NCBI GenBank assembly: GCA_963931865.1
Contig: OZ007516.1
Coordinates: 11,954,613-12,018,612, forward strand
Source of the DNA: Axinella damicornis
Lineage: Eukaryota; Porifera; Demospongiae; Axinellida; Axinellidae
Length of the DNA stretch: 64,000 nt
Reading direction: 5' to 3'
Made by a program: the position numbers and the translations under genes. Below, piece after piece: positions 42,301 through 56,749 of this stretch; the stretch's first letter is position 1; every line of letters begins with the position of its first letter. The notes below the pieces were generated by a model. That model searched no databases and had not been told where the DNA came from. It saw nothing but the letters and a program-made list of their open reading frames with translations.

Positions 42301-45300
42301 CTGAAGGAGCATATTTTGATTTGGTTCCCCCATTCAGTAAGCAAACAATACGATTTTGCTTTTGTAAGCGCAATCCTCTTCCCCTGATAAATCAGCTAGT
42401 GCCTCAAACCTGAATATCATCAGGAGCGTATTAGCAACACAGATTAGCAACAAACTGTATCTAAATTCTGATTGGGTGCACCCTGATCATGAATGCACCA
42501 CCACACACAATATTGCTTTGTACATATAATTATCTAGGGAGGGAGGGAGGGAGGGAGCTGTCTTGTCCGGTACACGGGGGTCACGTACCCTACAGGCTCT
42601 CTCCTTTTATTTCCTCATTAACCCACACACAAACAATCACTTCTCCACCTCTCAATACAGGACATCTCAGCAGTTGAAGACCGTCGCCGCACTCGTCTCA
42701 TCGGTCGCCCCTCTTTCATTCCTCGCAGCAGTGACTACCTAGACGACACTGAGGAGTCCTCCATCCAACAGGTGGATGCACAAGTAAGTGATGTGTGTGT
42801 GTGTGTGCGTGTGATTTCTAATCACTCTTCCATCAGATTAAATTGTTTTAATGACTGCAAGCAGTGTTCTCGCTATATAGGCCTTTAGCAGATGGTGCAG
42901 CACCATTTGGTTAATCAATCTCCATTTGGATGTAGTAAACTTAAGTAGGTGCACCATTTGGATGCTTCCTTAATTATTTATTTCCTTGCCCACAGCAGCT
43001 GCTGGCAGGGTTTCCCACTTAACATTCAATAGTAGTGTGTAAACAAAGCCATTCACATGTCTGCTTGATACAATTATACATTGTGCACCATTTGGATGTA
43101 GATTTCTAGCGAGAACACTGACTGCAAGAGATCAAGACCATTTTAAGTCTCCCCCTCCCTCTCTTCCTCCCCCTCCCTCTGTTCCTCCCCCTGCCTCTCT
43201 TCCTCCCCTTCCCTCTGTTCCCCCTCCCTCTCTTCCTCCCCCTCCCTCTCTTCCTCCCCCTCCCTCTCTTCCTCCCCCTCCCTCTCTCCTCCCCCTCCCT
43301 CTCTTCCTCCCCCTCCCTCTCTTCCTCCCCCTCCCTCTCTTCCTCCCCTTCCCTCTGTTCCCCCTCCCTCTGTTCCTCCCCTTCCCTCTGTTCCTCCCCT
43401 TCCCTCTGTTCCTCCCCCTCCCTCTCTTTCTCCCCCTCCCTCTCTTCCTCTAACTAAAGTTTCCAGGTGTTTAACGCAGAGTTGTGTACATGCTGCAATG
43501 GTTAACCTTGACCACTGTGTAAATTGCCAGGGAATAAGCCCATACCATGCTGCCTTCGGTGGGGAATCTCACTAGCATGATGAGTGCAGTGCTTCGTGAT
43601 TTTATCCACTTCCAGTCTTCCACTGTGGAGACTTGATCTGCACAAACATACTGGCAAAGTTTTGTTGCCAAGCACCACACACATAAAACCACACCTATAT
43701 ATGGGTACATGTTGAATGTACACATCACGTGCACGAGTTTTCCCTTTGTGCAGTGTACAGCTACCAAGAAACAGCACCTGTCAGTAACAACAGAGTATGA
43801 GGTGGGTTATCAAGTGATCGACATATCCGTAATGTGTACAGTAGTGGGCGCAAAGTTTGTTGGCCTCATTCCCAGGCTCTCCCCGTTGAACAAATGGAAT
43901 GGAATACTGTAAATACTCCTCCCCTCCGAGCATTGAAGGTACAGTTTGTACCATGTAACTTACCATGTGCAGGGTTGTGTCCACAGAAAGTAGTAAGGTT
44001 TCATACAAGATATGCTGTTGGGAGGAATAGGTCAGAATGCACCTCAAGATTGGTGTAGGGCGATCGTCAGGTGCATGTGCATGAAAGCCACGGTCTCTTG
44101 TCCCCCATTATTGAAGAGAGAGCCTTTGTTCAAGACTATGATCACTCGGACGCACTCACAAACATACACTCAGGAGTATGTCAGCAAGATGGAGGGGACA
44201 GTTAGACACCTCCAGCAGCAGCTTGCCACCTCTGAGCAGGTGAGGCTATAACCTCTTCCACACAGGTTTTGTCCCCACAATGACTTCAGGCAGTGTAATC
44301 CTTTACAAACCTGCGCTAGGACAGGTGATGTCACTGTGTACATGTTGCACTCTGTTGCAGGACTCTGCAGTTGTGAACAGTGAACTGAAGACAAAGACTG
44401 CAGAACTCACCACCGAGGTACGTACACGTTTGTGACCTCGTTTACAGACAATAGCTTGTGAATGCTTATGACACTACATTCAGTAATGATAACTATATAG
44501 GACTACATTCACTGCTCGATGCCACAAGTACGTACATAGCTGCTCTAGCTCTGCAATCCCGAAGGCCCTTGGCCTTCATGCTCGTTCACATCCCCAAGGT
44601 TGAGAACTTGAGCTACCATCCACGTACCTACGTTCATGCGTACATCATCAGAATAGATCTCTCATTCAGAGCCTCGCTCGCCTACTAATGTATTCGGCAA
44701 TGAAAACGATTGCACTTCCTGTCTAGACTTCTGGGACCATCTGATTGGTGCTCTTGGCCTGAATGGTTGAGCTACCTGACCTCACAGTTACTGTGCATGC
44801 AGAAACTCATACACTCCACACATTGTTGGTGCAACTCGCTGGTTCCAGCTTTTGTTGAATTGGCAGTTACACTACATGTATATGACAATTCACAGCTGTG
44901 TTGTGTTATGTGATGTAATGGTTGTGCTCTGTTTGTCATGCCCCCTCCCTCACTGCACAGCTAGCTGAGACTGAAAGGATGAGAAAGGAGGATAATTTGA
45001 GATTTCAGAGAAATTATGAGGTGTGTGTAAGTACATGTACGTAGGCCGTTCCCACCTCCAGTCTTTGATTGCTTGCAGTATACAAATACAGAGGGGAAGG
45101 CCTGGGAGACTTAGCCACGTACAGTCACGAAGATACATGGAGGGTGTGCCCGACGAAGATCTTCCTTATAGTTAGTCGGAGGATGGAGGCCAGAGCATTC
45201 ACAAGGCAGCATCAACACCGTTCGTTGCTCACGACGCCATGGATGGATCAAGGATATATAGGAATCATTATGGGCAGGTACTCCCTCTGTGCGTCTCTAC

Positions 45301-54300: not shown

Positions 54301-56749
54301 TGTTGCAGGCTGGTAGTGAGGAGGCCAGGATGAGGGCCTCTCTGGATGAGAAATCACAGCTGATTGAGACCTTGAGAGAGCAGGTAACTGTGACTACACG
54401 TACGTGTGCTGTGGTATGTGTATGTTTGCAGTGTATGTAAGCACATGTTAAGTTAGTCGTGTTCTCAGCTAAAGTTTCCAGGTGTTTAACGCAGAGTTGT
54501 GTACATGCTGCTATGGTTAACCTTGACCACTGTGTAAATTGCCAGGGAATAAGCCCATACCATGCTGCCTTCGGTGGGGAATCTCACTAGCATGATGAGT
54601 GCAGTGCTTCGTGATTTTATCCACTTCCAGTCTTCCACTGTGGAGACTTGATCTGCACAAACATACTGGCAAAGTTTTGTTGCCAAGCACCACACACATA
54701 AAACCACACCTATATATGGGTACATGTTGAATGTACACATCACGTGCACGAGTTTTCCCTTTGTGCAGTGTACAGCTACCAAGAAACAGCACCTGTCAGT
54801 AACAACAGAGTATGAGGTGGGTTATCAAGTGATCGACATATCCGTACTGTGTACAGTAGTGGGCGCAAAGTTTGTTGGCCTCATTCCCAGGCTCTCCCCG
54901 TTGAACAAATGGAATGGAATACTGTAAATACTCCTCCCCTCCGAGCATTGAAGGTACAGTTTGTACCATGTAACTTACCATGTGCAGGGTTGTGTCCACA
55001 GAAAGTAGTAAGGTTTCATACAAGATATGCTGTTGGGAGGAATAGGTCAGAATGCACCTCAAGATTGGTGTAGGGCGATCGTCAGGTGCATGTGCATGAA
55101 AGCCACGGTCTCTTGTCCCCCATTATTGAAGAGAGAGCCTTTGTTCAAGACTATGATCACTCGGACGCACTCACAAACATACACTCAGGAGTATGTCAGC
55201 AAGATGGAGGGGACAGTTAGACACCTCCAGCAGCAGCTTGCCACCTCTGAGCAGGTGAGGCTATAACCTCTTCCACACAGGTTTTGTCCCCACAATGACT
55301 TCAGGCAGTGTAATCCTTTACAAACCTGCGCTAGGACAGGTGATGTCACTGTGTACATGTTGCACTCTGTTGCAGGACTCTGCAGTTGTGAACAGTGAAC
55401 TGAAGACAAAGACTGCAGAACTCACCACCGAGGTACGTACACGTTTGTGACCTCGTTTACAGACAATAGCTTGTGAATGCTTATGACACTACATTCAGTA
55501 ATGATAACTATATAGGACTACATTCACTGCTCGATGCCACAAGTACGTACATAGCTGCTCTAGCTCTGCAATCCCGAAGGCCCTTGGCCTTCATGCTCGT
55601 TCACATCCCCAAGGTTGAGAACTTGAGCTACCATCCACGTACCTACGTTCATGCGTACATCATCAGAATAGATCTCTCATTCAGAGCCTCGCTCGCCTAC
55701 TAATGTATTCGGCAATGAAAACGATTGCACTTCCTGTCTAGACTTCTGGGACCATCTGATTGGTGCTCTTGGCCTGAATGGTTGAGCTACCTGACCTCAC
55801 AGTTACTGTGCATGCAGAAACTCATACACTCCACACATTGTTGGTGCAACTCGCTGGTTCCAGCTTTTGTTGAAAGCTGTGACCATAGATAATGTTAGAA
55901 CTTGTTAGCCTAAGCATTCCATGCAGAAGTTGCTTGAGTTGCTTACACCTCCAGCAAGAACCTGTGAGGTTTTGCACAATTGCACAAGATCTAGAACCAA
56001 GCTAGATTGTAGAAATGTAAGTAAGATCTTACTAGATGATTACCATGACCGATTGTACAACAAACAGTGCACAGGATAAGTATTGCATGAATACACTAGT
56101 TAAGTGCTTGTGTTCCCCTGGTAAAGGCTGATACAATGAGGGCCTCTCTTGGTGAGAGTACACAGCTCATTGAGAGCTTGAGGCAGCAGGTAACTGACCT
56201 ACTGTACCCTGTTCGTTGTTGTATGGTATACAAATGTACATGTAAGCACCTGTTATATTAAAGTTAGATAGTGAAAGTTGATAGATGGAGAATGCTAACT
56301 AGTGATGAGTGGTTATCTGCACACTTTCCAAGCAGCACTTCCCAAACGTATTGGTGAATGGGTTTGTAGATATGGGCGCCATGGAGCTCACAGAAGTTAT
56401 GCACTCAGACTCTGCTTCCGGAACATTACGTACACTCACATAAAGTCACATCTAAGGGTGTAATTGTATATGATTATGTTCATGTGCATCGATCCCTTTG
56501 TGCAGTGCACATCTACCAAGGAACAGTTTCAGTCGCTATCAACAGAGTATGAGGTGAGTTACCAAGCTATAACAGCCATCATATTGTATGTATAGTGGGC
56601 ACAATGTATTGTTAGCCTCATTCCCAGGCTCTCCCCCATGAGAATGATATCGCATTGTTTGTGTGTGGGCAATATCAAATACAACAGTTAGTAAGCGGAC
56701 AAAATGAAAATGGTATCGCCCATTCTAAGAAAGCAGACTGGTTTCTAGG

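What the first reader, a model, noticed from the sequence alone, without database searches (positions are those of the whole stretch)
43454..55874. Intragenic amplification of a six-exon coiled-coil cassette in a CENP-E-like kinesin
Four and a half near-identical 2.75-kb copies, each with six phase-0 exons, add 128 residues of stalk per copy without disturbing the frame. This is a modular, length-tunable stalk in a mitotic motor: unequal crossing-over could add or remove about 128 residues at a time. I know of no description of such an array in CENP-E.
Basis: partly seen in the sequence, partly recalled or inferred. Interest (0 to 1): 0.92.

Follow-up and report, generated by a model that had tools for sequence, protein, structure and literature searches.

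The report
Repeated stalk cassette in sponge CENP-E
One of two copies of a chromosome-moving motor gene, in what looks like a sponge, has its long stalk built from near-identical repeated six-exon blocks, and a diverged version of the same block array sits in the second gene copy, so the stalk seems to be lengthened and rebuilt by recombination.

Summary
Window 43454-55874 holds 4.5 copies of a 2754-bp unit (99.6-99.9% identical); each full copy carries six phase-0 exons encoding 128 residues. They lie in a 55-exon gene model (33686-60488, 1479 aa, all introns GT-AG). Its motor best matches CENP-E, and it has the post-neck RRxTxC motif and a C-terminal CxxQ.

So the array predates the gene duplication; the window copy looks like a recent re-expansion of one unit (orthologue of C3 unit 5). 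(2) 128 is not a multiple of 7: the reading frame is kept, but heptad register shifts by 2 per unit, fitting a jointed coil. (3) Stalk tandem repeats occur in 28 of 135 kinesin-7-like database proteins scanned (0 of 40 land plants); in Ephydatia-type and Halichondria sponge proteins the repeats are unlike this cassette.

Copy-number polymorphism and inclusion of all copies in mRNA are untested. Class: new variant of a known kind (multi-exon coding tandem repeat, as in nebulin or LPA).

The parts
33686..60488 (+). whole gene model, kinesin-7/CENP-E-like, 55 exons, 1479 aa
   Evidence: open frame end to end, GT-AG at all 54 introns; exons outside the array found in the C3 paralogue
33686..39443 (+). 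motor domain, exons m1-m11 (mixed phases)
   Evidence: Pfam Kinesin 2.7e-108; PDB best 1t5c, CENP-E, 2.3e-87
39533..42783 (+). neck and proximal stalk exons n1-n6, all phase 0; n5 (41999-42178) holds RRRTMC and RVTF
43149..43450 (+). CT-rich tandem tract abutting the array; similar pyrimidine tracts lie in the E3-E4 introns of C3 units 1, 2, 4, 5 and the terminal unit; probable deletion junction (inferred)
   Evidence: low-complexity similarity, also seen to the m6-m7 intron tract
43454..46206 (+). repeat copy 1; exons 43754-43801, 44174-44239, 44361-44417, 44961-45020, 45685-45762, 46047-46121
46207..48960 (+). repeat copy 2; exons 46507-46554, 46927-46992, 47114-47170, 47715-47774, 48439-48516, 48801-48875
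48961..51714 (+). repeat copy 3; exons 49261-49308, 49681-49746, 49868-49924, 50469-50528, 51193-51270, 51555-51629
51715..54468 (+). repeat copy 4; exons 52015-52062, 52435-52500, 52622-52678, 53223-53282, 53947-54024, 54309-54383
54469..55874 (+). partial copy 5; exons E0 54769-54816, E1 55189-55254, E2 55376-55432 only
56127..56189 (+). lone E5-like exon (21 aa), probably the remnant of an older unit
   Evidence: 62/63 identical in C3
56506..57995 (+). diverged terminal unit tE0-tE4
   Evidence: groups with the C3 terminal unit, support 100
58551..60488 (+). C-terminal exons c1-c5, ending in CKQQ
   Evidence: aligns to the C terminus of P0127, z 25 against 60 shuffles

Best explanation
The window holds one of two paralogous CENP-E (kinesin-7) genes of an animal, most likely a demosponge (inferred from relatives). 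The coiled-coil stalk of both genes is built from tandem copies of a six-exon cassette of about 128 residues. Shown: the gene models, the phase-0 exons, an old diverged array in the C3 paralogue and a young homogeneous array in the window gene. Inferred: recombination between homologous introns (unequal crossing-over or gene conversion) removed older units and re-amplified one of them (a C3-unit-5 orthologue with a unit-4-like first part). Because every exon from m11 to c1 starts in phase 0, such events add or remove whole in-frame stalk segments. Inferred: this changes stalk length and jointing while motor and tail stay constrained.
For: Array and exons; 41 of 41 exons from m11 to c1 start in phase 0. 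Paralogue with the same exon order, 62 exons, no internal stop, 59 GT and 1 GC donor among 60 internal exons. Age order: C3 units 1-5 differ pairwise by dS 0.12-0.41, paralogue motors by dS 0.085; 462 mismatches in 15103 aligned columns over 14 flank rows = 3.1%, array copies 0.07-0.44%. Tree of unit exons: the five window copies form one group (ultrafast bootstrap 100), with C5 next to them (99), WT with CT (100). Unit-5 orthology and unit-4-like first 800 bases. Constraint: 0 stops where a neutral simulation expects 5.4 exons with a stop, P(0)=0.001, 26 of 28 C3 exons compared. Coiled coil: unit z 5.3 (0/200), C3 array z 12.6 (0/100), Oscarella stalk 11.9, motor -0.3, tail -0.2. CENP-E identity.
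Against: No reads, cDNA or second individual: the copy number rests on one assembly. Both exon differences among window copies are replacements, about the number of exon hits chance gives for 15 sites, so the young array alone shows no selection. All 4 differences between the paralogues in tE5 and the terminal unit are replacements (dS 0). dN/dS between diverged units is 0.11-0.87 on 117-384 bases and observed aa changes were 74 against 89.5 expected: weak constraint. The simulation uses a consensus as ancestor. A stalk search of the protein database scored 7983 candidates and none reached E<=0.001. A benefit of a longer stalk is not shown.
Confidence: 0.78

Rival explanations
1. The near-identical copies are an assembly artefact: units were multiplied by the assembler, or two haplotypes of different copy number were merged.
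For: 99.6-99.9% identity over 12.4 kb is where assemblies err. Copies 1 and 5 share variants absent from copies 2-4, which a haplotype switch could also give.
Against: All copies are distinguishable pairwise by 2-12 substitutions. The C3 paralogue independently shows a multi-unit array of the same cassette with diverged, correctly ordered exons, so an array exists whatever the exact number here.
Confidence: 0.12
2. The window gene is a decaying duplicate: the array grew because the C12 copy is no longer under selection.
For: It lacks six stalk exons (x1-x6) and the older units present in C3. It differs from all seven outgroups at two motor sites that are invariant in them and in C3 (81 and 273). 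The exon differences in the array, and those to C3 in the terminal unit, are replacements.
Against: 55 exons without a stop, all splice sites intact; motor dN/dS 0.22 between paralogues (which does not say which copy is constrained); of 12 motor differences 4 favour the window copy, 6 the C3 copy and 2 neither; CKQQ end and RRRTMC motif kept.
Confidence: 0.15
3. The gene is not CENP-E but another coiled-coil kinesin, so mitotic conclusions do not apply.
For: KIF3B is only 16 bits behind CENP-E in the PDB ranking (280 against 296). In six-frame searches with a coral CENP-E the best single piece is on C2, not C12, and summed pieces favour C2 loci for the Oscarella query. The protein (1479 aa) is shorter than human CENP-E.
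Against: Those C2 loci are kinesin-2: best PDB matches KIF3B (428 bits) and OSM-3 (428 bits), far above CENP-E; six-frame pieces are biased by short exons. With assembled motors C12 or C3 is the closest of 11 motors from this genome in 12 of 13 database kinesin-7 proteins, a near tie in the other. RRxTxC and CxxQ are shared with animal CENP-E proteins.
Confidence: 0.05

Closest known systems
Nebulin triplicate region (human NEB)
   Same: Several exons repeated head to tail inside one gene, prone to copy-number variation (start of abstract in search listing: eight exons repeated three times, PMC9109913).
   Different: Sarcomere protein, not a coiled-coil motor stalk; here the same cassette exists in two paralogous genes in an old and a young state.
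LPA kringle IV type 2 VNTR
   Different: Kringle domain of a lipoprotein; population variation there is measured, here only proposed.
KNL1 repeat evolution
   Same: Outer kinetochore protein said to show recurrent repeat evolution (PMC5579357, passages seen; the cited original was not held).
   Different: From recall, short docking repeats rather than coiled-coil spacers. The same paper notes elevated copy numbers of CenpE genes, so a second gene copy as such is not new.
CENP-E stalk of other species
   Same: Motor plus long discontinuous coiled coil (PMC7475649 and PMC8905165, passages), in many database proteins with tandem stalk repeats.
   Different: Units differ in length (82 aa offset in P0028, 86 in Halichondria, 34 in P0127); exon structure there was not examined.

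Membership tests
CENP-E (kinesin-7) | N-terminal kinesin motor closest to CENP-E | tested here: met
   PF00225 2.7e-108; the two best PDB sequences, 1t5c and 6m4i, are CENP-E; closest motor of this genome in 12 of 13 database kinesin-7 proteins
CENP-E (kinesin-7) | Long discontinuous coiled-coil stalk | tested here: met
   Heptad fit above shuffles, register changing within each unit; home-made score, no structure predicted
CENP-E (kinesin-7) | RRxTxC motif after the neck (equivalence to the Aurora/PP1 site T422 of human CENP-E is recalled) | tested here: met
   RRRTMC in window and C3; RRxTxC in 9 and RRETWA in 1 of 14 database proteins looked at, none in 4
CENP-E (kinesin-7) | C-terminal prenylation box | tested here: met
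   Window ends CKQQ; 31 of 135 long database proteins end C..Q, 0 of 40 land plants; Halichondria, Oscarella and Lingula entries do not. Modification not tested; human CKTQ is recalled and not found in a search
CENP-E (kinesin-7) | Kinetochore localisation in mitosis | not testable with these tools
   needs imaging
Multi-exon coding tandem repeat (nebulin/LPA type) | In-frame tandem multi-exon units inside one gene | tested here: met
Multi-exon coding tandem repeat (nebulin/LPA type) | Copy number varies between individuals | not testable with these tools
   one assembly only; two paralogues differ in unit make-up

The most novel reading that the evidence does not exclude
The CENP-E stalk is a recurrent evolutionary length and joint tuner: in many animal lineages it is independently rebuilt from tandem coiled-coil units between a fixed motor and a fixed tail, and in this species the unit is a six-exon phase-0 cassette that still varies in copy number between individuals and between two gene copies.
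Probability: 0.4. Interest if true: 0.82.

Novelty: new variant of a known kind. Interest (0 to 1): 0.66.

Why it matters
Artificially shortened CENP-E stalks are reported not to rescue chromosome alignment, and a review concludes that stalk length and flexibility matter while the reason is unclear (PMC7475649, passages). Here two gene copies in one genome share motor and tail but differ in stalk make-up, and a recombination-prone cassette could change length in 128-residue steps. That opens the question of how long and how jointed a kinetochore motor stalk must be to comparison across individuals, paralogues and species.

Tried and rejected
Whole-array Fourier power at 3.5 and 3.667 residues gave no excess over shuffles, probably because register breaks cancel the signal; only period 3.6 in the single unit reached p 0.03. 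A local heptad fit with controls replaced it; it is home-made. BLASTP self-comparison returned only the identity hit even for the window protein, so that zero was discarded and a diagonal scan used. A stalk-only protein search found nothing at E<=0.001. A scan of phase-0 open stretches conserved in C3 was uninformative because the flanks are too similar. Summed six-frame pieces did not separate CENP-E from kinesin-2 loci; assembled motors and PDB searches did. Rejected: that the 153-aa ORFs in each copy are genes; they contain E5 read through its intron.

Rows dropped before the repeat count: of 151 sequences of 900 aa or more (149 database, 2 ours), 14 without exactly one DLAGSE motif were left out, several with duplicated motors. 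The 28 of 135 includes 4 isoforms of one Halichondria gene and 10 Lepidoptera rows with a shared 148-149-aa offset; two corals share a 109-aa offset and two crinoids 57-aa multiples, so I count at most about 14 independent cases. The 40 land-plant labels were given by me from record names. The database lists are the best 120 of over 7900 per search, not a balanced sample. For the flank divergence 14 of 22 rows were used; the 8 dropped rows match other units or the array edge.

Full report
WHAT IS THERE. Self-comparison of the window finds 43454-55874 as 4.5 tandem copies of a 2754-bp unit at 99.6-99.9% identity. Six exons recur in each full copy, each bounded by AG and [105 protein letters not shown] and [25 protein letters not shown], 128 residues in all. 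Copy 5 stops after the third exon. Fifteen alignment columns vary, two of them in exons. Copies 1 and 5 share several states that copies 2-4 lack.

THE GENE. By hand-built models checked in a script, the array sits in a 55-exon gene from 33686 to 60488 encoding 1479 residues; all introns are GT-AG. There is no transcript evidence. The motor (m1-m11) has mixed intron phases; all 41 exons from m11 to c1 start in phase 0. Pfam gives Kinesin at 2.7e-108 for the first 641 residues, and the two best solved sequences are CENP-E. After the neck comes RRRTMC; RRxTxC is in 9 and RRETWA in 1 of 14 database proteins looked at. The protein ends CKQQ; 31 of 135 long database proteins end C..Q, including P0127 (CKSQ) and Nematostella P0128 (CKQQ), while the Halichondria, Oscarella and Lingula entries do not.

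OTHER KINESINS HERE. A search with a coral CENP-E finds 24 pieces, the best on C2, and summed pieces are inconclusive. The two C2 loci are kinesin-2: KIF3B and OSM-3 are their best PDB matches. Among 11 motors taken from this genome, C12 or C3 is closest to 12 of 13 database kinesin-7 proteins, with a near tie on a short alignment for the other. C12 and C3 are thus the only CENP-E candidates among the loci looked at.

THE PARALOGUE. With the cassette protein, all matches up to E 0.3 are on C12 or C3 (60 candidates scored); a DNA search finds other places only for intron repeats (39 of 1257 candidates scored). The C3 copy matches the window along roughly 33129-63125, with 462 mismatches in 15103 aligned columns of 14 rows. 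Its model has 62 exons and 1752 residues, 59 GT and one GC donor among 60 internal exons. It carries six stalk exons (x1-x6) missing from the window gene, then unit 1 (E2-E5), units 2-5 (E0-E5), a lone E5 and a terminal unit E0-E4. The arrays encode 686 (window) and 711 (C3) residues. That x2-x6 were lost here rather than gained there is supported by similarity to P0127 (z 5.8); x1 shows none.

HISTORY. C3 units 1-5 differ pairwise by dS 0.12-0.41 while the two motors differ by dS 0.085, so the array is older than the gene duplication. In a tree of unit exons the five window copies form one group next to C3 unit 5 (ultrafast bootstrap 100 and 99), and the two terminal units pair (100). Along the unit the window sequence is 3-14% from unit 5 per 200-base bin, and in its first 800 bases equally close or closer to unit 4. 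The window array therefore looks like a re-expansion of one unit-5-like (partly unit-4-like) copy after older units were lost. Left of it, a CT tract follows sequence that in C3 lies just before exon x1; similar pyrimidine tracts lie in E3-E4 introns of several C3 units, but such low-complexity similarity is weak evidence. A deletion with ends in pyrimidine-rich introns is inferred.

CONSTRAINT. 26 of 28 C3 array exons were compared with their consensus: 129 substitutions, no stop. Neutral simulation expects 5.4 exons with a stop, P(none)=0.001, and 89.5 (sd 4.6) amino-acid changes against 74 seen. Constraint is real but weak; the 4 paralogue differences in tE5 and the terminal unit are all replacements. 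The window copies alone are too young to show any.

COILED COIL. A local heptad fit gives z 5.3 for the unit, 12.6 for the C3 array, 11.9 for an Oscarella stalk as positive control, and -0.3 and -0.2 for motor and tail. The best register forms about three segments per unit, and 128 mod 7 is 2, so successive units cannot continue one heptad frame: the stalk should be jointed. This fits the discontinuous coils described for CENP-E (passages). Among the repeat offsets only 175 is a multiple of 7, no more than chance gives.

OTHER SPECIES. The highest motor identity among 120 listed relatives is P0127 (eukprot Em0009g400a, 61%; I take the prefix to mean Ephydatia muelleri), then Nematostella (56%), Geodia and a coral (55%). 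With the P0127-like C terminus (z 25) this makes a demosponge the likely host. P0127 has one region weakly like the cassette (640-767, z 4.2) and separate repeats of its own; the Halichondria protein has 86-aa repeats that do not resemble the cassette (z 1.7). Predicted Halichondria isoforms are shorter by 81, 255 and 331 aa, as in-frame blocks within the repeats, with 0, 6 and 2 mismatching columns. Of 135 database proteins with one motor, 28 have a stalk repeat of at least 50 aa at 50% identity: 0 of 40 land plants and 28 of 95 others; the weakest scores 166, the best shuffle 111. Other coiled-coil families were not compared.

NOVELTY. Searches listed nothing describing this: CENP-E with tandem repeat, internal repeat or exon duplication (12 of 529 papers listed), CENP-E with tandem repeats, coiled coil, evolution and duplication (0 papers), kinesin stalk with tandem repeats (2 papers; passages of one). 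The library holds open-licence papers only. Precedents for multi-exon coding arrays are nebulin and LPA (abstract starts in listings).

NOT SHOWN. Transcription, inclusion of all copies, copy-number variation, and any effect on mitosis.

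Noticed in passing
window 30193-30771 (-) and 32506-32712 (-): ORFs matching Pfam Roc (3.1e-06) and Filamin repeat (3.8e-08), possibly exons of neighbouring minus-strand genes.
   Followed up: partly
window 4619-5631: Tandem array of an about 80-bp unit, roughly 12 copies, 94-99% identical in self-comparison.
   Followed up: no
window 45043-45404 and 45416-45544, recurring in the full copies: Two interspersed repeats in the E3-E4 intron with many matches elsewhere in the genome; the first has inverted ends.
   Followed up: no
C3:2664515-2664571 (exon x4, in L010): The only non-GT donor in either gene model, a GC donor.
   Followed up: no
P0140, P0142, P0144, P0145 (Halichondria panicea isoforms): Predicted isoforms of one CENP-E-like gene are shorter than the longest by 81, 255 and 331 aa within the stalk repeats, suggesting alternative splicing of units.
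   Followed up: partly
P0121-P0123 (Acanthoscelides) and P0001 (Culex): Database kinesins with repeated segments that include motor sequence, left out of the survey; possibly faulty gene models.
   Followed up: no
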